NCBI GenBank assembly: GCA_021740625.1
Contig: JAIOZK010000015.1
Location: 32,161-96,160 of the forward strand
DNA: 64,000 nucleotides
Source of the DNA: Bacteroidales bacterium
Lineage (GTDB): Bacteria > Bacteroidota > Bacteroidia > Bacteroidales > JAIOZK01
Direction: 5' to 3'
Shown: positions 14,100-56,210 of the stretch, piece by piece
Position numbering within the stretch: the stretch's first letter is position 1
How the letters are laid out: each line of letters begins with the position of its first letter
The notes under the pieces: generated by a model
The model's input: the letters and a program-made list of their open reading frames with translations, nothing else
What the model was told of the DNA's origin: nothing
The model's database searches: none
Made by a program: the position numbers and the translations under genes

Positions 14100-14201
14100 A
14101 AATCCTGTGGAAAAATATTCACAATCAATGATGAAATACACAAAAAACGAATTCATTATTCAGGGTTATTCCACATATTAAAATTGAGTATTACCTGCTT
14201 A

Positions 14202-14265
14202 TCAGGGATTAGGGGCAGGATAATGTATCCCTGAAACCATTCAAATGATTTGGCATATTCTTTTA
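14202..14265 (+). promoter_or_regulatory. Upstream region of the USP operon: inverted repeat plus TTGGCAT box
   Basis: Inverted repeat TCAGGGAT (14202-14209) / ATCCCTGA (14227-14234) followed at 14250 by TTGGCAT, which resembles a sigma-54 -24 element. The expected -12 GC is replaced by TTTA, so the promoter call is weak. The box lies about 43 bp before the ATG at 14294, a spacing that would suit a sigma-54 promoter with a short leader. Confidence 0.3.
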
Positions 14266-14293: not shown

Positions 14294-15172
14294 ATGTCGA
14301 GCATTTTGATCCCGGTCGATTTTTCAGCAACATCAAAAAACAACATACAGTACGGATTGAATCTGGCCAGGGAAACTGGCAGAAACATAGAATTGCTGTA
14401 TGTTGTGCAAATCGACTACCCCTCATACGGGCAGATAGGCCCCATAGAACCCCTGTCGAACCCTGCTGGAACAGGAACTATTTCCCCCATAAATATTAAA
14501 GAACAGGAAGAAACTGCAAAAAATGAATTTGACAAATTACTGCTGGAAATAAAATCTAACATCCCGGAGGATGTTAATATTGAAACAAATATCAGGACAG
14601 GTATTTATCCCGATGTGGTCATCGAGGAATCCAGCAGGAAAAAGATTGAGATCATTCTGCTGAACAGCAGAGGGAAGGAAGAAAAACTACAGGGAATGGC
14701 CATTGAATCCATCGATGCAATCCTGGAAAGTGCCCCTTGTCCCACCATTATTATATCACCCCAGACAAGGTTTGAAAATATCAAGAAGATCTTGTATGCA
14801 ACGGATTTTCAAAAAGAAGATATCGAATCACTCAAAGAGCTTTCAGGTTTTGCAGGACGGTTCAAAGCTGATATACTGGCGCTGCATATCACTGAAAACC
14901 CTGACTTCAGGGAAAGGATTGAAAAAAAGGGATTCAATGAACTGGTCAGTGAAAAGGTGGGATATCCCCATATCAGCGTGATGAGTATGCCTTCCGATAA
15001 AATTGCAAAAGGAATTGCAAACTATGCATATAATACCAGCGTCGACATGATCGCATTGCTGAAAGAAAACAAAGGTTTCTGGAAAAGTCTTTTCAGTAAA
15101 AGTACCACCGAAAGACTCATGAAAGAAACCGATCTGCCAATCATTGTTTTTAACCAGGCAAATAAAGGATAA
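14294..15172 (+). CDS. Universal stress protein, tandem UspA domains
   Basis: 292 residues, two UspA-like domains: the first starts MSSILIPVDFSATSKNNIQY and ends APCPTIIISP; the second begins ENIKKILYATDFQKEDIESL and ends LPIIVFNQ. Nucleotide-binding glycines are only partly kept, so ATP binding is uncertain. The start is well supported by a strong Shine-Dalgarno site (AAAGGAGG, 6 nt before the ATG), unusual for this phylum. It is followed 3 nt later by the baeRF gene and then by the FAD oxidoreductase and a secreted protein, all on the plus strand with short gaps, so a four-gene operon 14294-18546 is likely. Confidence 0.9.
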   Translation: MSSILIPVDFSATSKNNIQYGLNLARETGRNIELLYVVQIDYPSYGQIGPIEPLSNPAGTGTISPINIKEQEETAKNEFDKLLLEIKSNIPEDVNIETNIRTGIYPDVVIEESSRKKIEIILLNSRGKEEKLQGMAIESIDAILESAPCPTIIISPQTRFENIKKILYATDFQKEDIESLKELSGFAGRFKADILALHITENPDFRERIEKKGFNELVSEKVGYPHISVMSMPSDKIAKGIANYAYNTSVDMIALLKENKGFWKSLFSKSTTERLMKETDLPIIVFNQANKG

Positions 15173-15175
15173 TTT

Positions 15176-16333
15176 ATGATAAACATGGATAAGAAGACAT
15201 TTGAAGAACTTGCAGAATTTCATGAACCGCATTGCACAAGCATATACATACCGACTCATAGAGCCGGACAGGAGGTGAATAAAGGACTGGATAAAAAATT
15301 ATTTAAGAACAGTCTGAAGAAAGTGAAAGAGGAATTAAAACATGTTTACCAGATGAGTGAACCGGAAATCAATGATTATCTGGCACCTGCCAGTGAATTA
15401 CTTTCAAAAAGTGATTTCTGGAATTACCAGTCGGACGGGCTGGCAGTTTTCATCGGCAAAGACTTTTTCAGGCATTTTACCTTGCCGGTCCATTTTGAGG
15501 AATACTATTATGTGGCGGATCATTTTTACCTGAAACCGCTCCTGCCGCTGCTGAATGAAGAGGCAAACTTTTACATACTGGCACTCAGCCTGCATGATGT
15601 TAGGCTTTATGAAGGACATCCTCATCAGATAGACGAACTTGTGGTTGATGATCTGCTGCCGGAAAGACTTGAAGAAGCTGTGGGTTTCGATTACAGGCAA
15701 AAATACCTGCAGTTCCGGGAGGGACAATCCGGAACCGATAAAACCATTTTTCATGGACATGGCGAAGGAAAAGATGAAAAGAAGGAAGAAGTGTTAAAAT
15801 ATTTCAGGGCAGTTAACAATGGTGTGATGCAGGTACTCCACGATAAAAAATCCCCCCTGATCATTGCAGCAGTCGATTATCTCATACCGATTTACCGTGA
15901 AGCAAATGAATACAATCATCTTCATAATGAGCATATTCAGGGAAATCCGGAACACAGCGATCCGGTCCTTTTGCATGAAAAGGCCATGAATATTCTGAGC
16001 GATTATTTCGCAAAGGATCAAAAAGTGAAAATCAAAACCTTCGAAAGAGAACTGAGCAACAAGAAGGCTTCCTTTGAAGCAAAAGAAATCATCCCGGCTG
16101 CCCTTAATGGAAGAGTCGACACCCTTTTCATCAGAAACAGGTCCAGCCTGTGGGGCACTTTTGAGAAGGACACGAACAGCATAAACAAAGAAGACCAAAA
16201 AACTCCTCACAATGCCGACCTGCTGAACACTGCAGCCATTAACACACTGATGCAAAGTGGCAAAGTATTTCTTCTTGAAAAAGAAGAAATGCCTGAACCA
16301 GGCAGTCTTGTGAATGCAATTTACAGATACTAA
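15176..16333 (+). CDS. baeRF-family protein (bacterial relative of archaeo-eukaryotic release factor eRF1)
   Basis: 385 residues, soluble. The N-terminus (FHEPHCTSIYIPTHRAG) and the core (FYILALSLHDVRLYEG, then PLIIAAVDYLIPIYREANEY and the C-terminal NTLMQSGKVFLLEKEEMPE) match the baeRF7-like group, whose fold is related to the middle and C-terminal domains of eRF1/Pelota. Such proteins are predicted to act near ribosomes or RNA, but experiments are lacking. It starts 3 nt after the USP stop, with AAAGGA upstream; a second ATG three codons on is possible. The combination with a USP and an oxidoreductase suggests a stress-time role. Confidence 0.75.
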   Translation: MINMDKKTFEELAEFHEPHCTSIYIPTHRAGQEVNKGLDKKLFKNSLKKVKEELKHVYQMSEPEINDYLAPASELLSKSDFWNYQSDGLAVFIGKDFFRHFTLPVHFEEYYYVADHFYLKPLLPLLNEEANFYILALSLHDVRLYEGHPHQIDELVVDDLLPERLEEAVGFDYRQKYLQFREGQSGTDKTIFHGHGEGKDEKKEEVLKYFRAVNNGVMQVLHDKKSPLIIAAVDYLIPIYREANEYNHLHNEHIQGNPEHSDPVLLHEKAMNILSDYFAKDQKVKIKTFERELSNKKASFEAKEIIPAALNGRVDTLFIRNRSSLWGTFEKDTNSINKEDQKTPHNADLLNTAAINTLMQSGKVFLLEKEEMPEPGSLVNAIYRY

Positions 16334-16362
16334 GACGGAGATATAAAACAAAAGGAGATATT

Positions 16363-17601
16363 ATGAAAAAATATAAATATGTTATCATTGGTGGCGGCAC
16401 CACTGCCGGATATGCAGCGAAAGAATTCGTCAAACAGGGGTTAAATAAAGGAGAACTGTGCATCATTTCGGCTGAAAACATCTTACCCATGGACCGGCCT
16501 CCCCTTTCAAAAGATTTCATCACAACAAACATGGATAGAAAAGACATTCTTGTGAATGATTCTGACTTTTACAACAATCACGGAATCGATATTCTGCTGA
16601 ATGTCAGGGCCGATTCTATCGATTTTGAAGACAAAGTTGTTGCACTGAACAAAGGCAGCAAGATCGGATACGACAAATTATTAATTGCTACCGGAGCAGA
16701 ACTCAGGTACCTCGCCGTTAATGGCCACACCCTCAACAACATTCATTATCTCCGTACAATCGAGGATGCGGAAAACATCAGGAAGGCTGCCCGGGAGGCC
16801 AGTAAAATTGTTGTGATCGGCTCACAATACATCGGTACTGAGATGGCTTCTTCATTGAAACAACTTGGCAAAGAAGTCACTATGGTATACCCCGAAGACC
16901 GCTTACTTTCCAAATTTGCATCTGCCGATATCGCAGGCTTTCTCCAGAATTACTATCGCGATCAGGGAATTGAGCTTATCAATCATGATGAAGTGGTTCA
17001 GTTCAACGGCAACAAAAAAGTTGAAGAAGTTGAACTACGATCCGATAATATCATAAAAGCCGATATGGTGGTTGCCGGTATTGGGGTAAAACCCAATATC
17101 AATGCAGTTAAAAAAACGAACATTGCATTGAACGACGGTATCCTGGTAAATGCATACCTGGAAACCAACATCCCGGATGTTTATGCTGCCGGTGACGTGG
17201 CAAGGTTTCCCGATAAGACTTTTGATCAGTTACGCCGGGTGGAACACTGGGAAAATGCCTTCAAACAGGGAAAACATGCGGCAAAAGTATTGAGCGGACA
17301 AAAAGAACCTTATGAATTCCTGCCTTTCTTTTTCTCCGATATATTTGATCTCTCCTATGAATATTATGGAGATAACAAGGAAGCCGATACGGTCTTCAAC
17401 AGAGGAGATGTAAAAGCAGGCGATTTTAGCACCTGGTGGTTCAGGAATGATGTGCCCGTAGCTGCATTTATCATGAGCAGTCGCCCCGAAGTAGAAGGTG
17501 AAAAAGCCAGGGAATGGATCAGCAACCAAAGTATACTTGAGGCCGAAAAGATCGAGAACGAAGATATTGAATTACATGATATGATTATAAAAGAAGGATA
17601 A
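16363..17601 (+). CDS. FAD-dependent NAD(P)H oxidoreductase, AIF/ferredoxin reductase-like
   Basis: 412 residues. The FAD-binding Rossmann motif is at the N-terminus (VIIGGGTTAGYAA), followed by MDRPPLSK, the conserved IATGA, a second NAD(P)-binding fold (VVIGSQYIGTEMASSL, where the first Gly-rich position is atypical) and the second FAD motif VYAAGDVARFPD; an AIF-like C-terminal dimer domain ends the chain. Such enzymes pass electrons from NAD(P)H to ferredoxins, rubredoxins or flavins. No Rieske or rubredoxin partner gene is in the operon. A strong Shine-Dalgarno site (AAAAGGAGA) precedes the ATG. Being about 3 kb from an encapsulin ferritin locus, it could supply reduced flavin for iron release; that is inference. 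Confidence 0.85.
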   Translation: MKKYKYVIIGGGTTAGYAAKEFVKQGLNKGELCIISAENILPMDRPPLSKDFITTNMDRKDILVNDSDFYNNHGIDILLNVRADSIDFEDKVVALNKGSKIGYDKLLIATGAELRYLAVNGHTLNNIHYLRTIEDAENIRKAAREASKIVVIGSQYIGTEMASSLKQLGKEVTMVYPEDRLLSKFASADIAGFLQNYYRDQGIELINHDEVVQFNGNKKVEEVELRSDNIIKADMVVAGIGVKPNINAVKKTNIALNDGILVNAYLETNIPDVYAAGDVARFPDKTFDQLRRVEHWENAFKQGKHAAKVLSGQKEPYEFLPFFFSDIFDLSYEYYGDNKEADTVFNRGDVKAGDFSTWWFRNDVPVAAFIMSSRPEVEGEKAREWISNQSILEAEKIENEDIELHDMIIKEG

Positions 17602-17604
17602 ACT

Positions 17605-18546
17605 ATGATTTGCAAAAAATTTAAATCAATCGTCATCTTGCTTTTAATGACAATACCAAGCTCGCTTGTCATGGCACAAAATACCAATATGGAAATCCAT
17701 GAAAAGTATGCCGGAGATATTGTTTTTGCAAGGGAAAAGATCAATTTTGAAAACATCAACAATGGGATACTGAAAGACAATTTCAAGCTTTTAAGCAGTA
17801 TCTATGGCAAAATCTTCCTGAAAAAACCGCTTGCGGATTATTATGAAGATTTTGACTGGACCTATGATTACAATGATGAAAAATACAAGTACAATTTTTC
17901 CACTGTCATTTATATAGATGGCAAGATGGAGATCAAATGGTTGGACGAGCTGTCAAGAGAGGCTTTTAATAAATTCACAGCTTTTGACATCATCATTGCA
18001 CCGGATGAAAAAGACAAAATGAGGTACAGCGAACAAAGCAGTGACTGGAAAAACAAAATTTCCATGCTGAGCGAAGGCAAACATGAAATCAGGGTTGAGA
18101 TGCGGGCTGAAAACATTTCCAAACCGGGCCTCATGAAAGATCCGCTGGCAAGCGGTGATTTCAGCCTGCAGGTGGAAAAGTCCAAAATGGATGAATTCAG
18201 GCGTAAATTCGGTATCCGCCTTCCTGAAGCAACCATTATCGCGCCTGAAGTAGAAGAAGGTGTACTCGTTGCCAGTAAAAACATGTACAATGGCATGACA
18301 CCGGTTAAAGCCATCATTATTGAACCAACAGGTCAATGGCAGTACAGTCGCGATATTGAAGATAATATACTCTCCAGGAATTTTATTGCTGCCGTTGTTT
18401 TGAAAAGCTTCGACGGGGATTGTTTCGTTAAAACTGCCAGGTATTTTCAGGAACATAAAGGGAATTATCAATTCGACGATGTCCGAATGTCGGAAAAACT
18501 GGAGGATTACCTGAACTATCAAATTCCCTGTGAGAACATCAAATAG
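17605..18546 (+). CDS. Exported protein of unknown function
   Basis: 313 residues, not recognised as any named family. It has a signal peptide (FKSIVILLLMTIPSSLVMAQ) and then a mature part with no further membrane segment, rich in charged residues and probably alpha/beta. It starts 3 nt after the stop of the FAD oxidoreductase and has AAAGAAGG before the ATG, so it is co-translated with that gene. It has a single late cysteine pair (C in DGDCFV and IPCENI) that might form a disulfide. The link of a periplasmic protein to a cytoplasmic stress operon is notable. No function can be assigned. Confidence 0.75.
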   Translation: MICKKFKSIVILLLMTIPSSLVMAQNTNMEIHEKYAGDIVFAREKINFENINNGILKDNFKLLSSIYGKIFLKKPLADYYEDFDWTYDYNDEKYKYNFSTVIYIDGKMEIKWLDELSREAFNKFTAFDIIIAPDEKDKMRYSEQSSDWKNKISMLSEGKHEIRVEMRAENISKPGLMKDPLASGDFSLQVEKSKMDEFRRKFGIRLPEATIIAPEVEEGVLVASKNMYNGMTPVKAIIIEPTGQWQYSRDIEDNILSRNFIAAVVLKSFDGDCFVKTARYFQEHKGNYQFDDVRMSEKLEDYLNYQIPCENIK

Positions 18547-18682
18547 ATGGCTGCATTGTGCATATTCATCAACATCATATGTAAAGACTTATACACAGGC
18601 AAATCACCGTTTTTAAGGTGCAACATCAGGAAAAGCCCGGATAAAGGCCTTAAACGTACAATCACCTGCAGGTTTGTTGCAA

Positions 18683-18697
18683 TGGTATCAAGTTTGA
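18683..18697 (+). promoter_or_regulatory. Weak sigma-54-like element before dodecin
   Basis: TGGTATCAAGTTTGA resembles TGGCACGnnnnTTGC (TGG and TTG correctly spaced, final C replaced by A). It is 48 bp before the dodecin ATG in a 198-bp intergenic gap that otherwise holds nothing recognisable. Confidence 0.25.
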
Positions 18698-18744
18698 ATT
18701 TTAATAAAAGAAATTGAATGTAGAATCTCAAAAAAAGATTGATT

Positions 18745-18948
18745 ATGAAAATTGTAAAAGTTATAGAAGTAATTGCAGGATCGGAAAAGAGTTTTGAAGA
18801 TGCCATTCAGAATGCTCTGGAACAGGCATCCAAATCAGTTAAGAACATCAAATCAATTTATGTAAAAGAGATGAATTGCAACGTAGAGAACAATCAAATC
18901 GTTTCTTACGGTGTCAATGCAAAAATCTCTTTTGAAGTAGATGAATAA
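18745..18948 (+). CDS. Dodecin-family protein
   Basis: 67 residues: KIVKVIEVIAGSEKSFEDAI, QNALEQASKSVKNI, then a beta hairpin ending YGVNAKISFEVDE, the beta-alpha-beta-beta dodecin pattern. Dodecins form hollow dodecamers that store flavins or related ligands. In haloarchaeal and mycobacterial dodecins a Trp in the segment after the helix (NVVW, NLDW) sandwiches the flavin; here that place is Ser (NIKS) and the protein has no Trp at all, so normal flavin stacking is doubtful. The ATG at 18745 is preferred over a TTG two codons earlier. It is monocistronic, with a strong terminator downstream. Confidence 0.85.
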   Translation: MKIVKVIEVIAGSEKSFEDAIQNALEQASKSVKNIKSIYVKEMNCNVENNQIVSYGVNAKISFEVDE

Positions 18949-18974
18949 GGGTATTTGATCCCAGATGCTTATTT

Positions 18975-19019
18975 TTGTCCGTGGAGATGATGATTAGATT
19001 CTTCACGGACAATTTTTTT
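18975..19019 (+). terminator. Intrinsic terminator after dodecin
   Basis: A perfect 9-bp stem TTGTCCGTG (18975-18983) / CACGGACAA (19004-19012), extended by wobble pairs, followed by seven Ts (19013-19019). Confidence 0.88.
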
Positions 19020-19036
19020 AACCAAATAAAAATATT

Positions 19037-19426
19037 ATGAAGTATTATATCAACAGAGAAATTAAATCAGGCTTTGAAGAAGCCATTGAAAAAGTTACAG
19101 AGGAATTAAAAAAAGAAGGTTTTGGTGTATTGAGCGATATTGATGTTAGCGCAACATTGAAGAAAAAACTGGATGTGGACTTTCCCAGGTACAGGATACT
19201 GGGGGCCTGCAATCCCGGATTTGCACACAAGGCACTCCAGGAAGAAGAAAAGATAGGAACCATGTTACCATGCAACGTGATCGTACGCGAAATTCCGAAT
19301 GATTACGTAGAAGTAGCAGCCATAGATCCTGTAGCATCCATGCAGGCTGTCGAGAACGAAAAAATAAAGCCCATTGCCGAGGAGGTAAAAAAACGGCTTA
19401 CAAAAGTCATTACACAACTAGGATAA
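19037..19426 (+). CDS. DUF302 domain protein
   Basis: 129 residues matching DUF302: start YINREIKSGFEEAIEKVTEELKKEGFG, then YRILGACNPGFAHKALQEEEKIGTMLPCNVIV and a late DPVASMQAVENEKIKPIAEEV. DUF302 proteins are small soluble or periplasmic proteins of unknown activity; the two cysteines in GACNP and LPCNV are well kept in the family. There is no signal peptide. It lies directly after the dodecin terminator, so it must have its own promoter or depend on read-through; no promoter box is clear. It ends the plus-strand half of the stress region and converges with the GNAT/encapsulin operon. Confidence 0.88.
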   Translation: MKYYINREIKSGFEEAIEKVTEELKKEGFGVLSDIDVSATLKKKLDVDFPRYRILGACNPGFAHKALQEEEKIGTMLPCNVIVREIPNDYVEVAAIDPVASMQAVENEKIKPIAEEVKKRLTKVITQLG

Positions 19427-19440
19427 TAAACAGTATTTAA

Positions 19441-19545
19441 CTTCAGGGCAGAACCCTGGGCCCATTTTCCGATGCAAAGCATCGGGGAAACTTGCCTGAC
19501 GGTCAGGTTAAACCATAACTTCCTGTCCACGGGAGCAAACGCGAA
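19441..19545. repeat. Intergenic hairpin-rich repeat
   Basis: Between the convergent DUF302 and GNAT genes lie short hairpins: CCGATGC/GCATCGG with an AAA loop near 19470 and CCTGA/TCAGG near 19495, followed by the words GGTTAAACC and CCGTGGACAGG in one or other orientation. Similar words (TAGGCAAGTTTAAACC) recur near 58310, so this looks like a member of a small dispersed family rather than a gene. Confidence 0.45.
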
Positions 19546-19550
19546 AGCAG

Positions 19551-19600
19551 AATAAAAAAATGGTCATTTCGCTCAAAACAGTACAGAACGAAATGACCAT
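19551..19600 (-). terminator. Intrinsic terminator of the encapsulin operon
   Basis: A perfect 12-bp stem ATGGTCATTTCG (19560-19571) / CGAAATGACCAT (19589-19600) with a 17-nt loop, followed on the minus strand by a run of seven Ts. It is 33 bp after the GNAT stop. Confidence 0.88.
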
Positions 19601-19633
19601 CTCAATTATTAATTATTAATTACTAACTGTCAA

Positions 19634-20080
19634 CTATTTGTCTCCGGTCCAGCGCATTTCCAGGTATTTATTGGTATATCCTACTTTCTCGTAAAGATAG
19701 CGTGCTGGATTATCCGGTTCAACATGCAATTTCATGGTACCATCGGCCATCTGATGTGTTTTTTTCATCAGTTGCCGGCCGAGGCCTTTCCCTCTGAAAT
19801 CACGATGCACTGCAATATAAACCAGGATGTTTTCAGGGATATAGCCTTTCATTCCGGTTTTATTCACCACTACAGCACCTGCCAACTGCTCATCGATATA
19901 CCCCATCAGTACATATCCCCCGAAAGAATCGAATTCTTTCATTGCGAAGTCAACACATCTGGTAATATCTTCTTTGGGATCTCCAAACTGGTCAAGATGC
20001 TTGTATAAAAAATCGATCAATTTTTCTTTTTCCTCTGCCGGAATACCGGATTCCGGCGTATACTCTTTGATTTTTAACAT
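19634..20080 (-). CDS. GNAT-family N-acetyltransferase
   Basis: 148 residues with the acetyl-CoA binding signature in VYIAVHRDFRGKGLGRQLM (R-G-K-G-L-G P-loop) and the late LYEKVGYT. The N-terminal half includes a FGGYVLMGYIDEQLAGAVVV strand typical of the family. It acetylates an amine on an unknown acceptor. It is the last gene of the minus-strand operon, 11 nt after the encapsulin stop, and is followed by a strong terminator. It has no C-terminal tag like that of EncFtn, so it is probably not shell cargo; whether it modifies the shell or its cargo cannot be told. Confidence 0.88.
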   Translation of the reverse strand: MLKIKEYTPESGIPAEEKEKLIDFLYKHLDQFGDPKEDITRCVDFAMKEFDSFGGYVLMGYIDEQLAGAVVVNKTGMKGYIPENILVYIAVHRDFRGKGLGRQLMKKTHQMADGTMKLHVEPDNPARYLYEKVGYTNKYLEMRWTGDK

Positions 20081-20091
20081 ATCTGTTTTTA

Positions 20092-20886
20092 TTATTTTAG
20101 TAAAACAAAAGCGGCGGGGTCGATCACCTGGAATGTAAATGCTTCTGTAAAATAAAGCTGGACATTGTTGCGGTCATGGGTTTCATAACCGATCGAAATA
20201 TCTTTGCCCAGGGTAATTTTAAAATCACCGCCTCTTTCCGATACCACAAATGCGCCTTTCAGGTTGGGAGCCAGGATCAGGCTTCCGCCGAGAATGTGCT
20301 CCAGTTGTTGCCGCAATGGATAACCGTGCACAAAAGTAGATATATTCTCCCACTTTTCAACATCCAGCACCAAACTGTATGGGCCTTCGATGGCAGAAGT
20401 TTTCAACACACTCAATGCTTCCGTTACGGCATGCAAGATCTTTGAAGAATCCTCCGGAAAATCGTGCGCCTGGTTTTCCGCCATATTTTTCAATCCTTTA
20501 ATATTGGCATTTTTCAAACCTTCATAAATAGCATTTTCTTCGAAGGCCGCCAGTCGTTTGGCTGCTTTTTCCAGGGGATCCAGGTCGATATCCTTGGCAC
20601 CCCGTTCAATATTATCAAGTTCCCATAAATCAAGCTTAAAAGCTGTTCGCACCTCAATCAAGGGATGTACTTCCTGTATCCCATATTGCAATTCCTTTTT
20701 ATCCTGGTTTTTGGGTATGTGCAATCTGCCAGCCGGTATGGCACCCATGTCCAGACCATTCGGGCCATCCACATCGGCAAACTTCCTGGCCGACAAATCC
20801 GATTTAAACACCTCGCTTGCCTGCTCATTGATTTCCTCCCATGCTGCTTCGGTAATGGGAGCAAGTTGTTTTTTCAAAATATCCAT
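20092..20886 (-). CDS. Encapsulin nanocompartment shell protein (family 1)
   Basis: 264 residues, aligned by memory along its whole length with the Thermotoga maritima encapsulin: LAPITEAAWEEI, RKFADVDGP, FKLDLWELDNIERG, IEGPYSLVLD, VVSERGGDFKITLG and the C-terminal FTFQVIDPAAFVLLK. The fold is the HK97 phage capsid fold, forming icosahedral protein shells in the cytoplasm. The Trp in DLWELDN (W88, equal to T. maritima W87 on which flavin stacks) is kept. The ATG at 20886 is chosen because AAAGGAG lies just upstream; the longer frame would run into EncFtn. It is 13 nt after the EncFtn stop. Shell size (T number) cannot be deduced by eye. Confidence 0.97.
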   Translation of the reverse strand: MDILKKQLAPITEAAWEEINEQASEVFKSDLSARKFADVDGPNGLDMGAIPAGRLHIPKNQDKKELQYGIQEVHPLIEVRTAFKLDLWELDNIERGAKDIDLDPLEKAAKRLAAFEENAIYEGLKNANIKGLKNMAENQAHDFPEDSSKILHAVTEALSVLKTSAIEGPYSLVLDVEKWENISTFVHGYPLRQQLEHILGGSLILAPNLKGAFVVSERGGDFKITLGKDISIGYETHDRNNVQLYFTEAFTFQVIDPAAFVLLK

Positions 20887-20899
20887 AATATATTCTCCT

Positions 20900-21241
20900 T
20901 TACTTGATTTTACCGATTCCCAGATCACTTTCATTTTCACCTTCCTCCTCCTCACCTTCTTCCAGTTCGGTGATATTACCATCGGTAAAGAGATAGGTCT
21001 TCAGATTCTCATCCCATGCATCCATATTTCTCCTCAGCCATTCGATGGCCATGCATGCATGCTCGATCTCCTCATCCCGGTTGTGGGCAAGAATCTGCTT
21101 CAGCCCTTCGTCGCTGGTTATATCAATGCGCTGGTTGTACCAGTCGACGGCTTCAATTTCTTCTTTCAAACTTACCAGAGCGCGTGTAATGTCCCTGGCC
21201 TTTCCTGATAATTCATTTGCTGGTTCGTGATATTGTGACAT
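20900..21241 (-). CDS. Encapsulated ferritin (EncFtn) with C-terminal cargo peptide
   Basis: 113 residues. It matches the Rhodospirillum rubrum EncFtn core closely: SQYHEPANELSGKARDITRA, LKEEIEAVDWYNQR, ILAHNRDEEIEHACMAIEWL. Ferroxidase residues are present (E28, E58, H61, equivalent to R. rubrum E32, E62, H65), as are W34 and the entry-site glutamates E27/E30. It forms a ring-shaped ferroxidase that cannot store iron itself and works inside encapsulin. After a long acidic linker (EEGEEEEGENES) the tail SDLGIGKIK fits the cargo-loading peptides that bind the shell interior. The ATG at 21241 is used; a TTG three codons earlier is possible. There is no Shine-Dalgarno site. Confidence 0.96.
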   Translation of the reverse strand: MSQYHEPANELSGKARDITRALVSLKEEIEAVDWYNQRIDITSDEGLKQILAHNRDEEIEHACMAIEWLRRNMDAWDENLKTYLFTDGNITELEEGEEEEGENESDLGIGKIK

Positions 21242-21312
21242 AATTTTCAATTTTTTTGATTGTCATGGGAAAAAACCCTGCCAATAAAAACTTTCCTGAT
21301 TTATTATAATTT

Positions 21313-21642
21313 CTATATGATACGATTCGATCTCATTGTATTCTTTGGTATTCTCACATAGAGTATATTCCCGTCTACATTGGCGGATATCAATCTTGAA
21401 TTTGCATTTGCCGGCAATTTGAAATTACGCTCATACACCTTTTTACTTTCATGGCCCATGATGCGCTTCTTTCTAATGGAAAGCTGCAATATATCATCCT
21501 TCACATTCATCTTCAGATCATCCTGCCCAAAATCAGGCACGGCAATGCTTATCGTATAATCCTTTTTGTCTTCACTAATATCTATGGGGCGTTTACTGTA
21601 GGGGTTTCTTTTTATCAATTCTTCTTGGTTTATCTTTTCCAT
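21313..21642 (-). CDS. Small heat-shock protein (Hsp20/alpha-crystallin)
   Basis: 109 residues with an alpha-crystallin domain: RPIDISEDKKDYTISIAVPDFGQDDLKMNVKDD, IRKKRIMGHESKKVYERNFKLP, then the late ANVDGNILYVRIPK; the N-terminal arm is short (about 18 residues) and the C-terminal I-x-I motif is replaced by NRII. It is an ATP-independent holdase that forms oligomers. It is upstream of EncFtn by 71 bp on the same strand with no terminator between, so it probably leads the operon Hsp20-EncFtn-encapsulin-GNAT. AAGAGG before the ATG is a moderate Shine-Dalgarno site. Confidence 0.92.
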   Translation of the reverse strand: MEKINQEELIKRNPYSKRPIDISEDKKDYTISIAVPDFGQDDLKMNVKDDILQLSIRKKRIMGHESKKVYERNFKLPANANSRLISANVDGNILYVRIPKNTMRSNRII

Positions 21643-21669
21643 AAGTTAACCTCTTAAAGCAATATGAAC

Positions 21670-21685
21670 CAAAATAAGATGCCAA
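21670..21685 (-). promoter_or_regulatory. TTGGCAT box upstream of the Hsp20/encapsulin operon
   Basis: On the minus strand TTGGCATCTTATTTTG begins 43 bp before the Hsp20 ATG. TTGGCA is an exact sigma-54 -24 core, but the -12 part is TTTG instead of TTGC. The gene immediately upstream encodes a sigma-54 activator. A similar box precedes the USP operon at 14250. Confidence 0.35.
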
Positions 21686-21839
21686 CAATTGCGATGGAAT
21701 TAACGAACTTATGAAATGCTTTCAATTTCAAATGCTCCATTAATTTTCTCGGTAAAGAAATAAAATACCGCAATGCAGATTGTAGAATAATATTCACAAC
21801 AATGGGAATGAATTTCTTCAGCTTCGATGGGATGACCCA

Positions 21840-23189
21840 TTATGATCTTGTGGGATCGATATTGAACTTATTGATCTTATTATACAAGGTTTTCCGGTCG
21901 ATCTTCAGTATCTTGGCGGCCCTGGATTTATTAAAATCAGCTTTGTGCAGGGCATCCAGAATAACCTGCCGTTCGGCATGATGCGAAGCCTCTTTAAGAT
22001 CTACATCAGATCGCGGATCAGTTGACTTTTCCGAAAAATGACCGGGACGCCTGATCTCATCCGGGATATGGATGCTTTCAACAACTTCATTATCGCAAAG
22101 CAATACAGAACGTTTGACAACATTTCTGAGCTCTCTCAGGTTTCCCATCCATTCATAGTTCTGCAATATTTTTTTAACCTCATCATCAAAGTCTTTTACA
22201 GATTTATCCAGTTCATCATTGGCCTGTTCCCTGAAATAATCTGCAAAAATTACAATATCCTCAGGCCTTTCCCGAAGTGGGGGCACTTTTATTTTAAATT
22301 CATTGATCCTGTGGTAAAGATCATCGCGGAAATTATTTTCCTTCACCATATTCACAAGGGGCTCATTGGTAGCTGCAATGATCCTCACATCAATGCGAAT
22401 ATCCTTATTCTCTCCTACCCTGTTTACCGTGCGCTCCTGAAGTACGCGCAATAGTTTTACCTGCACCTCATAAGGCAGGTTACCGATCTCGTCAAGGAAC
22501 AGGGTACCGCCATGGGCTGCTTCAAAGGAACCCATTTTATCCTTAATGGCTCCTGTAAAAGCGCCTTTAACATGCCCGAAGAGCTCGCTGTTGGCCAATT
22601 CATACGGGATTGCACCGCAATCAACGGCTATAAATGGTTTTTCTTTTCGCTTGCTGTTGTAATGAATGGCCTTGGAAACATATTCTTTTCCTGTTCCCGT
22701 TTCGCCTTCTATCAGTACAGTCATATCGGTGGGCGCCACGATCCTGGCCAGTTTCAGAATTTCTTTCATCTGCCGGCTTTCCCCGATTACAAATTCTTTT
22801 TCAAAGCTTTTCTTTCCCCTGCTTTTGCGCCTGCCCTTCAACGCCTGTTTGATGAGTGAAAGCATTTCCTCAGGACGAATGGGCTTGGTAACATAATCAA
22901 ATGCCCCCGCCTTGATCAGCTTGACGGCTGCCGATACTTCAGCATAAGCAGTAATGACGATCACTTCCAAAGTACTGTTCATCCTTTTGATGCTATTCAG
23001 GATGTTCATGCCGTCGCTGTCGGGCAACCTGTAATCCAGCAGCACCAGGTCATAATTATTGTCTTTGAGCTTTTGAAGTCCTTTGTTTCCAGCAAAGGCT
23101 ACATCCACTGCATAGCCTTCTTCTTTCAGAAAGTTTTCCAGCAAAGTGCAGATATAAGTATCATCATCAATGACCAGTATTCTCTTCAT
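21840..23189 (-). CDS. Sigma-54-dependent response regulator, NtrC family
   Basis: 449 residues in three parts. Receiver domain 1-120 with D8-D10 acidic pocket and phospho-acceptor D52 ([12 protein letters not shown]), K102. AAA+ domain about 135-370 with Walker A GETGTGKE (162-169), the sigma-54 contact loop GAFTGA (209-214) and Walker [10 protein letters not shown]-terminal Fis-type helix-turn-helix ([20 protein letters not shown]). When phosphorylated such regulators open sigma-54 promoters from upstream sites. The partner kinase gene is 9 nt upstream on the same strand. Targets are likely to include neighbouring stress genes, because TGGCAT-like boxes precede several; that is inference. 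Confidence 0.96.
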
Positions 23190-23198
23190 AATACGTAT

Positions 23199-25148
23199 CT
23201 ATTGTTTTAATTCTTTTTTCAATTCCCTGATGATGTGGTCTGAGCTATCAACAATCTTATGAATCATCTCAGGTATTGTGCCATAATTTTTCTTTCGTAG
23301 GGTGAGGTCTTCAGTATGCTCAAGTAATTCGACAAGATGCATGGCCTGGATATGCCTGCCGGAGGGGATCATTTTATGCGCCAGTTCTCCGATGCTTTTC
23401 CAATCTTCTTTTTGCAGAAAATGCCTCATTAGCTTTATATTGGAGTGTGTATTGGAGATAAAGGTATTGACCATTGTATTGAAGAATGTCTTGTTCCCCC
23501 TGGTTGTGCTTTCAAGCTCTGCCAGGTTGTAAGGCCTGTCCTGATCCACAAAAACCTGTTCTGTCGCCTTTTCCTCTTCTGTTTTGCTGAGTGTTTGCAT
23601 ATCCTCAATGTTTTCATCGAAGAAAAACCGCACAAGTGTATCAAAAAGTTCTGATTCGTTAAAAGGTTTTAACAGATATCCATCCATGTCTGCATTCAAA
23701 AATCTCCGCAAGTCCCTTTCGATTACATTTGCCGTTACAGCCAGGATGTACAGCGGTTCTTTTCTTTGCTTTTTCATTTTGCGGATACGCTGTGTTGCTT
23801 CCATACCACTCATGCCCGGCATATGAATATCCATTAGGATGATATCAAAATCGTGTTCCTGGCACATTTCAATCGCCTGGAAACCATCCACAGCAATCTT
23901 ATATCGAACGTCCCATTCATCGAATATGGTTTTTGCCAGCAAGCGGTTTAATTCGTCGTCGTCAACCAGCAGGATGAATTTATTTTTTAATACAATGGGA
24001 TCAATGTGAACCTGTTGCGTTGCGGGCAGCTTCTCTAAAGGCACTTTCTTAAAGGGCAGTGTCACGATAAACTCCGAACCTTCTCCGGGAGTACTTTCAA
24101 TGGCAATTTTACCATTTTGCATTTGTACCAGTTTTTTTGCAATCGTGAGTCCCAGTCCGCTCCCTCCAAATTTCTTTGTAATTCCACCATCAGCCTGGGT
24201 AAACTCTTTGAATATCAATTTACGTTTGCTTTCTTCTATTCCGATCCCGGTATCAATTACCCTGAAAATGATCCCAACCTCATCTGCATATTCATTTTCT
24301 ATTTCAGCAGAAACGGTAACTGATCCTTTCTCAGTAAACTTAATTGCGTTGTTTACAAGGTTAAGCAAGATTTGTTTCAGCCTGACCACATCGCCTGATA
24401 TCGGATAATCCAACCGATGACTCTTGATCATAAACAGCTCAATTCCTTTTTTTTCTGCTTTCAGTCGTTCAATATTTTCAATCTCACTGAATACATCTCC
24501 CAGGTTAAACACTTTGCTTTCGAAGTTAATTTCTCCGATTTCTACCTGGGATAGGGTAATGGTTTCATTAACAATGGAAAGCAAATGAGAAGAGGAGTCC
24601 CTGATTGCATTCAAAAAAGTACTTTGCTTTTCATCCAGCTTGGTTTTCAGGAGCTGTTCCGTAAATCCGATCACAGTATTCAATGGTGTCCTGATTTCAT
24701 GACTAACGCTGGCCAGAAATTTACTTTTGGCCTCATTGGAACGCTCTGCACGCTTCATAGCTGACTTCAGGGCTTCAGCGCTCAATTTATCTTCGGTAAT
24801 ATTTTCAAATATGAGCATGCACGCTACAACATCCTCACTGTTGTTCTCCCTGATCGGTACTGCCTGAATGAAATAATAGTGATCATTGATCATCAATTCA
24901 TGCGAAACACTGGTACCTTTCATAGAAACCCGCAAAAGGGGATTCAGGGCATGATAAACCTTTGTTTCAAAAAACTCACGAATGTGTCCTTTTTCGCTCA
25001 AATTTCTATCCCGAAATGTTTTACGCAATTCCGCTCCCTCTGCCATGATTGCTTGAAGATCCCTGTCGATCAGCCATATCATAGCATTGGGTATATTCCG
25101 CAGCATTTGCATCAGAAGTTCCTGTTTTCTGCTTGATTTATCCTCCAT
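23199..25148 (-). CDS. Cytoplasmic hybrid histidine kinase (PAS-HisKA-HATPase-REC-Hpt)
   Basis: 649 residues without a membrane segment. A PAS-like domain (about 10-115) is followed by a coiled coil, the H box SVSHEIRTPLNTVIGF (H150), ATPase with the N box LNLVNNAIKFT and G boxes DTGIGI and GGSGLGL, a receiver domain with D440 in IILMDIHMPGMSG, and a C-terminal Hpt domain with H591 in ELAHKMIP. The multi-step relay H-D-H would pass phosphate to the NtrC-type regulator encoded next. A soluble PAS sensor suggests an internal cue such as redox state, oxygen or a metabolite. A promoter box lies 20 nt upstream of the ATG. Confidence 0.95.
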   Translation of the reverse strand: MEDKSSRKQELLMQMLRNIPNAMIWLIDRDLQAIMAEGAELRKTFRDRNLSEKGHIREFFETKVYHALNPLLRVSMKGTSVSHELMINDHYYFIQAVPIRENNSEDVVACMLIFENITEDKLSAEALKSAMKRAERSNEAKSKFLASVSHEIRTPLNTVIGFTEQLLKTKLDEKQSTFLNAIRDSSSHLLSIVNETITLSQVEIGEINFESKVFNLGDVFSEIENIERLKAEKKGIELFMIKSHRLDYPISGDVVRLKQILLNLVNNAIKFTEKGSVTVSAEIENEYADEVGIIFRVIDTGIGIEESKRKLIFKEFTQADGGITKKFGGSGLGLTIAKKLVQMQNGKIAIESTPGEGSEFIVTLPFKKVPLEKLPATQQVHIDPIVLKNKFILLVDDDELNRLLAKTIFDEWDVRYKIAVDGFQAIEMCQEHDFDIILMDIHMPGMSGMEATQRIRKMKKQRKEPLYILAVTANVIERDLRRFLNADMDGYLLKPFNESELFDTLVRFFFDENIEDMQTLSKTEEEKATEQVFVDQDRPYNLAELESTTRGNKTFFNTMVNTFISNTHSNIKLMRHFLQKEDWKSIGELAHKMIPSGRHIQAMHLVELLEHTEDLTLRKKNYGTIPEMIHKIVDSSDHIIRELKKELKQ

Positions 25149-25168: not shown

Positions 25169-25176
25169 CAAAAGTA
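25169..25176 (-). promoter_or_regulatory. Bacteroidetes -7 element for the kinase/regulator operon
   Basis: TACTTTTG on the minus strand, an exact TAnnTTTG match, 20 nt before the kinase ATG. A TGG, not TTG, sits at the -33 distance. Confidence 0.5.
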
Positions 25177-25342
25177 GAGTGATTTCTACACTTCTCCACA
25201 GTTTTGCAGTCAGATTCAATTCAAATTAATAATACAAAAAATATGAATATAAACAAAAATAACACCTGCAAGTGTTGATTTTCAATCTCTGATAAAAATC
25301 TTTATCGTTTAAACCATGGCCACAGGTTCAACTGTATAAAGA

Positions 25343-25357
25343 TGGCATAACCTTCGT
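25343..25357 (+). promoter_or_regulatory. TGGCAT box upstream of a USP gene
   Basis: TGGCATAACCTTCGT, 60-odd bp before the ATG at 25409, shares the -24-like TGGCAT with the boxes at 14251 and 21684. The -12 part is poor. The rest of the 260-bp gap between the divergent kinase and USP genes is AT-rich with nothing else recognisable. Confidence 0.25.
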
Positions 25358-25408
25358 GAGTAATATACAGGAATCTAAATCACCTAACACACGTAATATT
25401 TTTTAGCT

Positions 25409-26254
25409 ATGAAAAGAATACTTGTACCGACAGACTTTACGGATACCGCAGAAAACGGACTTGACGTTGCGGCAGATCTTGCCGAAGAACTGAATGCTGA
25501 AATTCTATTGCTGAATGTAATCTATCCTGTAAGAGGTACCACTTTTACCGCAATGGGTGACATTAACAAAATGCCCAGGGGTGAAGCCGACCGTTTTATG
25601 GTAGAGCTTGTGCGTACCAACAAAGTCAGATTACAGGAAGAGATCAAAAACTACGAAGACAGGAATATCACAATCACTCCACATATCGACTTTGAGAACA
25701 AAACCCATGGTCTCAATCATTTTGTAAAAGAAAATGAAGTTGATTTTATCGTAATTGGAACAAAAGGCAGCAAATCTTTAACAGAATACCTATTTGGCAG
25801 TCATACGGAAAATATTATCAAGGCTTCTGATTGCCCTGTTATATCGATAAAAGAACCAACGAAAGATTTTAAGCCCAAAAATATTGTTTTTGCAGTTGAC
25901 ATTCAAAAGGAAGAATATTACGGTATAGATGACCTCCAGGAGTTCGCGGAAGAATTCAACAGCCAGGTACATTTCCTCTATGTCATGGATGATGGTGTCG
26001 ATAACAACGAAGCAGTAAGCAAATTACAAAACCTGGCCGATTCAAATCATTTTAAAAACTACACCATCAATACGCTCGAAAACAGCAATGTTGAGAACAC
26101 CATAAAAAAGTTCGCCAGGCGGAAGGAAGCCGACATGCTTGCCGTGGTATCAGAAGGTAAGAAGGGGATCAAAGAACTTATCTTCGGCAGCGTAACCAAT
26201 GATATCATCAATAATATGCATGAGCCTGTTCTCGTAATGAGCAAAGAAAAGTGA
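25409..26254 (+). CDS. Universal stress protein, tandem UspA domains
   Basis: 281 residues. First domain MKRILVPTDFTDTAENGLDVAADLAEELNAEILLLNVIYP with the nucleotide loop GTKGSKSLTEYLFGSHTENI (G-x2-G-x9-G-S type) and CPVISI; second domain from about residue 150 (KPKNIVFAVDIQKEEYY), ending EADMLAVVSEGKKGIKELIFGS and EPVLVMS, which also keeps a Gly-Ser loop. Both loops look able to bind ATP, unlike the USP at 14294. It is divergent from the two-component operon and is a candidate target of it. There is no Shine-Dalgarno site. Confidence 0.92.
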   Translation: MKRILVPTDFTDTAENGLDVAADLAEELNAEILLLNVIYPVRGTTFTAMGDINKMPRGEADRFMVELVRTNKVRLQEEIKNYEDRNITITPHIDFENKTHGLNHFVKENEVDFIVIGTKGSKSLTEYLFGSHTENIIKASDCPVISIKEPTKDFKPKNIVFAVDIQKEEYYGIDDLQEFAEEFNSQVHFLYVMDDGVDNNEAVSKLQNLADSNHFKNYTINTLENSNVENTIKKFARRKEADMLAVVSEGKKGIKELIFGSVTNDIINNMHEPVLVMSKEK

Positions 26255-55226: not shown

Positions 55227-55298
55227 AGAACAAACAAGGCTGTGGAATAATATCCGCAACAAACGGAACACATCATTGCTTATAAACAATTTTAAAAC

Positions 55299-56210
55299 TG
55301 CCTATGCCGCGGTAACACGCCCGGCATGCAGAAATGAAGCATCACAGCATTTGGGGGAAAGACAGGAAGGTCAACTGGTAAAATCTTTGATCCGGTATTG
55401 CTGAACCAATAATAAAAGGAACATGGCAAAAGAGAAGATGTGGTGCTTACCACCAAAGTAGGTCTCGACTGGGATGAGGATGCTGATGAAAAGCAACCTG
55501 TCAGGAATTCTTCCCCGGAAAGGATCATGAAAGAGATTGATGACTCATTGCGCCGCCTGCAAACCGACTATATCGATATCTACCTGGTACACTGGCCCGA
55601 TCCGCTGGAAGCCTTTGAAAAAACCGCCATGAGTTTGTACAGGCTATTGGAGATCGGGAAAATACGTTCCATCGGGGTCAGCAATTATTCAACGGATCAG
55701 ATGGAACAGTTCAGAGCTGGTGGTCCCTTGCATGTGAATGAACCCCCATTCAATCTTTTTGAAAGAAAAATCGAGGAAGATGTTTTGCCCTATTGTAAGA
55801 AGAATGAAATCAGAACATTGGGGTATGGCGCCCTGTGCCGGGGACTACTTTCCGGCAAGATGTCACAAGACAGGGAATTCAAGGGTGATGACCTCAGAAA
55901 ATACGATCCGAAATTCCAGGGTAAACAATTCGAGCAATACCTGAATGCAGTAAAAAAGCTGGATACTTTTGCACGAAAAAACTATGGCAAACAAGTCATC
56001 CACCTTGCAGTTCGCTGGATCCTCGACCAGGGAATAAGCACAGCCCTCTGGGGAGCACGCCGGCCCAAACAACTGGAAGCCATCGACCAGGTCAGTGGCT
56101 GGCATATTGATGATGATGCCATGCAGGAGATAGATCAAATTCTCAAAGAAACCATCAAGGATCCCGTTGGCCCGGAGTTTATGGGTCCACCATCGCAGGA
56201 AGATAAGTAG
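55299..56210 (+). pseudogene. Aldo/keto reductase, decayed at its 5' end
   Basis: From 55416 the frame encodes KEHGKREDVVLTTKVGLDW, then DYIDIYLVHWPDP (with the catalytic His) and a normal C-terminal half to 56210, including GVSNYS, LGYGAL and a late ALWGARRPKQLEAI. The catalytic Lys in TTKVGL is kept. The N-terminal 60-70 residues with Asp and Tyr of the tetrad are missing. Just upstream, in the same frame, RGNTPGMQK-stop-SITAFGG (55308-55352) resembles an N-terminal strand of the family, followed by two stop codons at 55410-55415 and about 80 nt fewer than expected. So the gene appears to be broken by stops and a deletion. The GTG at 55440 is not a real start. Confidence 0.65.

What the first reader, a model, noticed from the sequence alone, without database searches (positions are those of the whole stretch)
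19634..21642. Iron nanocompartment operon: Hsp20 - EncFtn - encapsulin - GNAT
EncFtn with its ferroxidase residues and a C-terminal LGIGKIK-type cargo tail stands 13 nt from a family 1 encapsulin gene. Unusual here is the gene order with a small heat-shock protein in front and an acetyltransferase behind, closed by a strong terminator. A holdase could aid shell or cargo assembly, and acetylation could tune the shell or its cargo. The core system is known; the four-gene combination may not be described.
Basis: partly seen in the sequence, partly recalled or inferred. Interest (0 to 1): 0.75.

Follow-up and report, generated by a model that had tools for sequence, protein, structure and literature searches.

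The report
Stress-switched iron nanocompartment operon
A Bacteroidales-type bacterium carries genes for a protein shell predicted to store iron beside the genes of a likely stress-sensing switch, and DNA motifs that resemble that switch's predicted control sites stand in front of them, so iron storage would here be one arm of a general stress response.

Summary
In detail: Hsp20, EncFtn with ferroxidase residues and a LGIGKIK tail, a family 1 encapsulin and a GNAT lie in one direction with gaps of 71, 13 and 11 nt, then a hairpin terminator. Among 80 related EncFtn loci a close Hsp20 homolog recurs once, in the same genus, and the GNAT never. GNAT relatives sit in a symporter-peptidase-racemase cluster. 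What recurs is the upstream kinase and NtrC-type regulator, beside varying stress genes. The regulator co-occurs with encapsulin (10 of 18 genomes with it, 3 of 180 without). Sigma-54-like boxes stand 42-43 nt before Hsp20, EncFtn and Usp1. A dyad TGTRGAA-N4-TTCYACA stands upstream of Hsp20, Usp1 and the kinase. Both are enriched at such loci. Best reading: a known iron store wired to a sigma-54 enhancer-type stress regulon, with Hsp20 and GNAT as co-expressed neighbours. It is a new regulatory variant of a known kind; there are no expression data.

The parts
21313..21642 (-). Hsp20 small heat-shock protein, 109 aa
   Evidence: PF00011 46.4 bits; close homolog (43%) only in the same-genus genome G645 among 21 chosen genomes
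20900..21241 (-). EncFtn ferroxidase cargo, 113 aa, with C-terminal tail DLGIGKIK
   Evidence: TIGR04535 155.4 bits over cut-off 125; PF22277; PDB relatives 33bf, 7oe2, 5da5; ferroxidase positions
20092..20886 (-). Family 1 encapsulin shell protein, 264 aa
   Evidence: NF041155 273.9 bits over cut-off 100; closest solved chains are Maritimacin (the T. maritima shell, organism recalled), E 2.2e-71
19634..20080 (-). GNAT-fold acetyltransferase, 148 aa, 11 nt behind the encapsulin
   Evidence: PF13508 and PF00583 over cut-off; no PDB sequence match at 1e-3
19551..19602 (-). Rho-independent terminator: 17-pair hairpin plus T run
   Evidence: 90-nt stretch -27.8 kcal/mol, z -5.9, 0 of 200 shuffles
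21671..21684 (-). Sigma-54-like box TGGCATCTTATTTT, 42 nt before the Hsp20 ATG
   Evidence: same-genus Hsp20 has one at 44 nt
21781..21798 (.). Enhancer-like dyad, 2 mismatches to TGTRGAA-N4-TTCYACA, 114 nt upstream of the Hsp20 box
21270..21283 (-). Sigma-54-like box TGGCAGGGTTTTTT, 42 nt before the EncFtn ATG
   Evidence: 13 of 14 bases identical in the same-genus genome
21840..23189 (-). NtrC-type sigma-54-dependent response regulator with GAFTGA loop and Fis-type HTH
   Evidence: PF00158, PF00072, PF02954; alignment of 12 sequences, the window's included
23199..25148 (-). Hybrid histidine kinase (HisKA, HATPase, receiver; Hpt below cut-off)
25173..25190 (.). Enhancer-like dyad (2 mismatches) between the kinase and Usp2
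25343..25359 (+). Weak sigma-54-like box TGGCATAACCTTCGTGA, 66 nt before Usp2
   Evidence: Score 9 of 11
25409..26254 (+). Universal stress protein (Usp2), divergent from the kinase
   Evidence: PF00582; same place in 7 of the 14 other regulator loci looked at
14106..14123 (.). Enhancer-like dyad (2 mismatches), 145 nt upstream of the Usp1 box
14251..14264 (+). Sigma-54-like box TGGCATATTCTTTT, 43 nt before Usp1
14294..19426 (+). Convergent gene set: Usp1, baeRF protein, pyridine nucleotide reductase, unknown ORF, dodecin, DUF302 protein
   Evidence: Pfam; Usp1 and baeRF homologs also beside encapsulin in G810 (L192)

Best explanation
By sequence this is a family 1 EncFtn-encapsulin gene pair, predicted to form an iron-storing nanocompartment, and it is likely switched on together with Hsp20 and universal stress proteins by the adjacent histidine kinase and NtrC-type regulator, which is predicted to bind enhancer dyads and drive sigma-54 promoters. 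Shown by sequence: the genes, their order, the boxes, the dyads and their enrichment at related loci. Inferred: under stress (probably redox or energy stress; the signal is unknown) the kinase phosphorylates the regulator. Its oligomer on the dyads at 21781-21798, 14106-14123 and 25173-25190 would activate RNA polymerase with sigma-54 at the boxes before Hsp20, EncFtn and Usp1. The Hsp20-EncFtn-encapsulin-GNAT transcript would end at the terminator at 19602-19551. EncFtn would oxidise ferrous iron and dock by its tail inside the shell, where ferric iron would be kept away from peroxide. Hsp20 would be a parallel output that protects proteins. The GNAT would be a co-expressed gene of separate, probably small-molecule, function; it was found beside the encapsulin in this genome only.
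For: Core identity. Regulator and kinase directly upstream on the same strand; RpoN in the genome; GAFTGA loop present and HTH stretch DRKTLYNK invariant in the 12 aligned sequences. The kinase-regulator-Usp2 arrangement is present in 8 of 15 regulator loci looked at, window included; flanking genes include trehalose synthase, a ferritin-like protein, Ku and LigD, hemerythrin, PfpI, PRC, CsbD and SOD. In G810 (another family) it is kinase-regulator-SOD-EncFtn-encapsulin; in the same-genus G645 it is kinase-regulator-Hsp20-two genes-EncFtn-encapsulin. Co-occurrence of regulator and encapsulin: 10 of 18 versus 3 of 180 genomes, Fisher 5e-10, no correction for kinship. Boxes scoring 9.5 or more at 30-70 nt: 17 of 140 gene starts near the regulator versus 2 of 204 in Bacteroidota EncFtn loci; resampled DNA mean 2.1, maximum 6. 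Without window and same-genus locus, 11 of 102 versus 2 of 192. Dyads with at most 2 mismatches, kinase starts left out: 18 of 122 versus 3 of 192; also without Usp2, 13 of 114 versus 3 of 192. Both elements, kinase and Usp2 starts left out: 6 of 114 versus 0 of 192. Window dyads 5 versus 1.28 expected, 0 of 100 shuffles reach 5. The EncFtn of G683, on another contig than its regulator, also has both elements.
Against: No expression data. In the window the -12 half is TTTG, TTTC and TTTT, not the canonical TTGC; the full consensus with up to 2 mismatches is not enriched in the window (22 versus 23.5 expected), nor is TGGCA-N6-TTT as such (8 versus 6.3). The window's EncFtn has no dyad of its own within 400 nt (best 4 mismatches). 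Gene starts elsewhere in the window are not clearly poorer in boxes (2 of 34 at 9.5 or more; 6 of 34 at 9 or more, against 23 of 140). Box weights and distance limits were set after seeing the window and same-genus sites; the dyad was first noticed by eye before kinase genes. Outside the genus the dyad enrichment is modest (8 of 86 versus 3 of 192, p 0.0045). Of 11 other order-level EncFtn loci tested only that of G683 has both elements, so the wiring is not general. Three of 13 encapsulin genomes lack the regulator at the threshold used. 7 of 15 regulator loci looked at lack the full kinase-regulator-Usp2 arrangement. Over-representation of stress genes there was not tested. In G810 the EncFtn beside the encapsulin lacks a cargo tail.
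Confidence: 0.65

Rival explanations
1. One reading: Hsp20 is a dedicated holdase for shell or cargo assembly, and the GNAT acetylates shell or cargo, so the four genes form one functional machine.
For: Same strand, gaps of 71, 13 and 11 nt, common terminator; the GNAT lies 11 nt behind the encapsulin.
Against: Hsp20 near EncFtn in 1 of 80 and GNAT in 0 of 80 related loci; 68 immediate neighbours gave no HSP20 or GNAT family among the 25 of 101 families listed, families with a single member mostly not shown; GNAT relatives belong to a symporter-M20-racemase cluster in three genomes examined; no cargo tail on either protein.
Confidence: 0.08
2. An ordinary EncFtn-encapsulin operon under housekeeping promoters; the kinase, regulator and stress genes are neighbours by chance and the boxes are A+T-rich coincidences.
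For: Neither box pattern is enriched over the whole window; other EncFtn genes have a TAnnTTTG element within 130 nt (16 of 45 rows, which hold some places twice).
Against: Placement at 42-45 nt in both species of the genus and before Usp1; enrichment outside the genus; dyads in enhancer position; no TAnnTTTG before the EncFtn of the window, G645 or G683.
Confidence: 0.2
3. The GNAT alone has been newly recruited and tunes the store, for instance by acetylating a small molecule or an EncFtn lysine under stress.
For: It is the only match of its kind in this genome at E 1e-3 and is placed as the last gene before the terminator.
Against: Seen in one genome only; the same-genus genome keeps its copy (59% identity) in the symporter-racemase cluster, and no GNAT homolog stands behind its encapsulin.
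Confidence: 0.06

Closest known systems
EncFtn (Flp) family 1 encapsulins such as those of Rhodospirillum rubrum, Haliangium ochraceum and Thermotoga maritima (PDB 5da5, 7oe2, 3dkt)
   Same: Cargo and shell families, cargo tail, ferroxidase residues and cargo-before-shell order (PMC8346489 section 7)
   Different: Placed behind a kinase and NtrC-type regulator with sigma-54-like boxes; Hsp20 and GNAT flank it. Section 7 and the passages of PMC8346489 that I read mention neither for EncFtn systems; its supplementary figures were not seen.
NmpRSTU of Myxococcus xanthus (PMC11841059, abstract and passages)
   Same: NtrC-like regulator with a hybrid kinase, dyad enhancer sites upstream of sigma-54 promoters, a universal stress protein in the regulon, induction under hypoxia
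   Different: Different dyad (GCGCA-N5-TGCGC); 'encapsul' and 'ferritin' do not occur in its main text; orthology of the present regulator was not tested.
Predicted sigma-54 regulons of Bacteroidota (PMC12316311, passages)
   Same: Chaperones including IbpA predicted under sigma-54 and enriched in Bacteroidota and Planctomycetota
   Different: 'Encapsulin' and 'ferritin' do not occur in that text

Membership tests
Family 1 EncFtn encapsulin system | Shell protein of the family 1 equivalog above cut-off | tested here: met
   NF041155 273.9 bits versus 100
Family 1 EncFtn encapsulin system | Cargo of the encapsulin-associated ferritin-like subfamily above cut-off | tested here: met
   TIGR04535 155.4 bits versus 125
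Family 1 EncFtn encapsulin system | Ferroxidase residues | tested here: met
   E28, E58, H61 and neighbours conserved with 80 relatives; role numbering recalled from R. rubrum
Family 1 EncFtn encapsulin system | C-terminal cargo tail | tested here: met
   DLGIGKIK; by my reading a tail of this type ends 77 of 80 relatives (46 by the script's strict pattern, 31 more by eye)
Family 1 EncFtn encapsulin system | Assembly of iron-filled shells | not testable with these tools
   Needs expression and electron microscopy
Sigma-54 / NtrC-type enhancer-driven regulon | RpoN in the genome | tested here: met
   PF04552 178.5 bits
Sigma-54 / NtrC-type enhancer-driven regulon | Activator with sigma-54 interaction domain and GAFTGA loop | tested here: met
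   PF00158, alignment
Sigma-54 / NtrC-type enhancer-driven regulon | -24/-12 promoter (GG-N10-GC) | tested here: inconclusive
   -24 half present, -12 half deviates in the window; canonical ones before flanking genes of L191, L192 and L194
Sigma-54 / NtrC-type enhancer-driven regulon | Enhancer dyads upstream of the promoter | tested here: met
   Hsp20 and Usp1 in the window; Hsp20 and EncFtn in G645; EncFtn in G683, each with 2 mismatches; not for the window's EncFtn within 400 nt. Binding untested
Sigma-54 / NtrC-type enhancer-driven regulon | Expression depends on rpoN and the activator | not testable with these tools
   Needs mutants or an in vitro system
Nmp-type oxygen regulators | Same binding dyad | tested here: not met
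   GCGCA-N5-TGCGC differs from the dyad found here
Nmp-type oxygen regulators | Orthology of the regulator | not tested
   No comparison with NmpR was made

The most novel reading that the evidence does not exclude
A so far undescribed sigma-54 enhancer-driven general stress response of Bacteroidales-type bacteria, built on a hybrid kinase, an NtrC-type regulator and a divergent Usp with the operator TGTRGAA-N4-TTCYACA, has captured the EncFtn encapsulin in one lineage. The iron nanocompartment is there a switchable stress organelle and no longer a constitutive iron store.
Probability: 0.5. Interest if true: 0.66.

Novelty: new variant of a known kind. Interest (0 to 1): 0.5.

Why it matters
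How encapsulin operons are switched on is poorly known (my judgement); the passages that I saw of the 2024 review describe iron regulators in general and give no regulator for EncFtn (PMC11202242). The locus names a regulator, an operator and promoters that can be tested directly, and it links iron sequestration to proteome protection in one circuit. It also outlines a candidate stress regulon for an order of bacteria, which could be read in other genomes by its dyad and boxes.

Tried and rejected
Rejected: a dedicated Hsp20 or GNAT role. Plain sigma-70 promoters: 9 found versus 10.2 expected in 18800-22600. The full sigma-54 consensus and the bare TGGCA-N6-TTT pattern are not enriched over the window as a whole; only their placement and the related loci carry the signal. 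TAnnTTTG is not clearly enriched either (61 versus 55). A first, wider version of the box test (25-110 nt) gave 23 of 139 near starts versus 25 of 564 control starts and 3 of 33 far starts at 9.5 or more. The 28 control loci are EncFtn loci of other Bacteroidota, chosen by record title; some belong to genomes that carry the regulator (L059 and L209 share 300 of 300 upstream bases), which works against my reading. The 'near' set holds 14 of the 18 regulator genomes: G734, G777 and G803 were not fetched, and G675's short contig (L200) was left out. In one search at most 8 candidates per genome were scored, so the regulator may be missed in some. PDB search with the GNAT gave nothing at 1e-3. The neighbour scan used 68 of the 79 same-strand neighbours within 300 nt, one of them (L045) cut short, and listed 25 of 101 families. 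Of 329 EncFtn relatives found the tool kept 80; some of the 80 and of the order-level loci are the same place. The 21 genomes were chosen by hand: all with regulator or encapsulin. Structure prediction, fold search and the search for homologous proteins were not used. The signal of the kinase remains unknown.

Papers: PMC8346489, section 7 and passages; PMC11202242, start of the abstract and passages; PMC11841059, abstract, outline and passages; PMC12316311, start of the abstract and passages. All others only as search listings. Searches behind 'not in print': encapsulin with Hsp20 (1 paper, one mention of each term), with acetyltransferase (20, 19 listed), with sigma54 (0), with universal stress protein (1); EncFtn with Bacteroidetes (1); encapsulin, histidine kinase, two-component system, ferritin-like (56 papers with three of four, 20 listed); Bacteroidetes with general stress response, sigma-54, universal stress protein (18 with three of four); Bacteroidetes, sigma54, NtrC, stress (6); Hsp20, sigma54, universal stress protein, response regulator (64 with three of four, 20 listed). 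The library lacks most subscription papers.
Full report
What is there. On the minus strand lie Hsp20 (21642-21313), EncFtn (21241-20900), a family 1 encapsulin (20886-20092) and a GNAT (20080-19634), with gaps of 71, 13 and 11 nt. A 17-pair hairpin with a T run follows. EncFtn and shell pass the curated cut-offs of TIGR04535 and NF041155; their nearest solved relatives are EncFtn and encapsulin structures. The ORF list gives the encapsulin a longer start at 20982; the ATG at 20886 aligns with the solved homolog from residue 1.

Are the flanking genes part of the system? I fetched 80 EncFtn loci, the best of 329 found, and searched their ORFs with the window's proteins. The GNAT was in none. 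The Hsp20 was in one, L020, which is identical over 3,777 bases to a locus of G645, a genome of the same genus; there a 65-aa protein and a methyltransferase stand between Hsp20 and EncFtn. The 65-aa protein has no Pfam match but is related by phmmer to a CsbD protein of L201. Among 21 genomes chosen because they carry the regulator or encapsulin, only G645 besides the own genome has a close Hsp20 homolog (86 bits; the rest 35 or less). GNAT homologs are present in 55 of 295 genomes of the class and in 16 of the 21. In the three places of this order that I fetched (G645, G683, G810) the GNAT lies in a cluster of sodium:solute symporter, M20 peptidase and alanine racemase genes (families by Pfam in G645; in the other two by my reading of similar sequences). 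In the seven of 29 further loci printed a symporter-like or racemase-like gene adjoins it (by my reading).

What does recur. Upstream are an NtrC-type response regulator and a hybrid histidine kinase, with a universal stress protein divergent from the kinase. Close homologs of the regulator (E at most 1e-140) occur in 18 of 198 genomes of the order, the own one included. I looked at 15 of these 18 loci: 8, the window included, have kinase, regulator and Usp2 side by side; 7 do not. Flanking genes vary and include trehalose synthase, YtxH, a ferritin-like protein, hemerythrin, Ku and LigD, PfpI, PRC-barrel, CsbD and SOD; whether stress genes are over-represented was not tested. In G810 the order is kinase, regulator, SOD, EncFtn, encapsulin, with Usp1 and baeRF homologs on the far side as in the window. 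Encapsulin occurs in 13 of the 198 genomes; 10 of these carry the regulator, against 8 regulator genomes without encapsulin (Fisher 5e-10, not corrected for kinship). Linkage of the two genes is seen in three (G000, G645, G810); in the other seven they lie on different contigs.

Control sites. Before Hsp20, EncFtn and Usp1 of the window stands TGGCA-N6-TTT at 42, 42 and 43 nt from the ATG; in G645 before Hsp20 and EncFtn at 44 and 45 nt. The two EncFtn copies of the box share 13 of 14 bases in otherwise diverged DNA. The -24 half is canonical; the -12 half is not in the window, but canonical forms stand before flanking genes of other families (L191, L192, L194). Scored against a recalled sigma-54 consensus with some slack, boxes of 9.5 or more lie at 30-70 nt before 17 of 140 gene starts near the regulator, 2 of 204 in Bacteroidota control loci and 2 of 34 elsewhere in the window; resampled DNA gives 2.1. 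Without the window and G645 it is 11 of 102 versus 2 of 192, and with strictly canonical weights (score 9 or more) 15 of 102 versus 5 of 192. At the laxer score of 9 the rest of the window (6 of 34) is as rich as the near set (23 of 140).

Enhancer-like dyad. In the output a dyad, TGTRGAA-N4-TTCYACA, was noticed by eye before kinase genes. With at most 2 mismatches it lies 114 nt upstream of the Hsp20 box, 145 nt upstream of the Usp1 box and between kinase and Usp2 in the window; two further window sites lie in an ECF sigma gene and before a truncated aldo/keto reductase. With kinase starts left out it precedes 18 of 122 gene starts near the regulator versus 3 of 192 controls and 1 of 33 far starts. 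With the divergent Usp2 also left out it is 13 of 114 versus 3 of 192, and outside the genus 8 of 86 versus 3 of 192, p 0.0045. Dyad and box together: 6 of 114 versus 0 of 192. In G683 the EncFtn is on another contig than the regulator and still has both elements; the other 10 order-level EncFtn loci outside the genus do not have both. The window's EncFtn has the box but no dyad of its own within 400 nt; it would depend on the Hsp20 enhancer about 500 nt upstream of its box, or on read-through from Hsp20.

Mechanism. Shown: genes, order, motifs, enrichment, co-occurrence. Inferred: kinase to regulator phosphotransfer, binding of the dyads, sigma-54 transcription, co-expression of Hsp20, Usp and the iron compartment. 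EncFtn and shell function follows from their families. The stress type is a guess from the company of genes; the nearest described circuit by design that I found is NmpRSTU of M. xanthus, a hypoxia-induced NtrC-like system.

Verdict. The core system is known and the flanking pair is not a conserved part of it. The regulatory wiring is the new point and is testable.

Noticed in passing
L016:1492-2862 (own genome, contig C36) and L082:3787-5231: An EncFtn paralog without cargo tail stands beside a patatin-like phospholipase (PF01734 in both) and a ~93-aa protein related between the two places (41 bits); the other place is a Neomarinimicrobiota MAG. No encapsulin match in the DNA held at either place. 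'Encapsulated ferritin' with 'patatin' finds no paper.
   Followed up: partly
L192:3862-5588: In G810 the EncFtn directly before a full-length encapsulin gene lacks a cargo tail (ends SIVKIEDD) and follows a superoxide dismutase that also ends without one.
   Followed up: partly
L037, L052, L082: By my reading only these 3 of 80 EncFtn relatives lack a tail; L052 and L082 show no encapsulin and L037 only a 69-aa match, so tail loss seems to go with loss of the shell (L192 is an exception).
   Followed up: partly
L003, L004, L005, L006, L017: Stand-alone EncFtn-like proteins of 104-108 aa in other genomes of the phylum with no encapsulin match in the about 3.3 kb held around each.
   Followed up: no
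window 55241-56210: Dyad (2 mismatches) and a sigma-54-like box stand before an aldo/keto reductase ORF whose match starts at profile position 65 of 291, so the gene looks truncated at its N-terminus.
   Followed up: partly
window 21654-21839, minus strand: Between regulator and Hsp20 an open frame of 61 residues with no ATG in its first half reads like a small hydrophobic protein and overlaps the Hsp20 box. The same-genus genome was not searched for it.
   Followed up: no
neighbours of EncFtn-encapsulin in L027, L057, L083, L210: A DNA photolyase family occurs in 4 of 68 scanned neighbours, by my reading these four genes behind the encapsulin; L057 and L210 are the same place.
   Followed up: no
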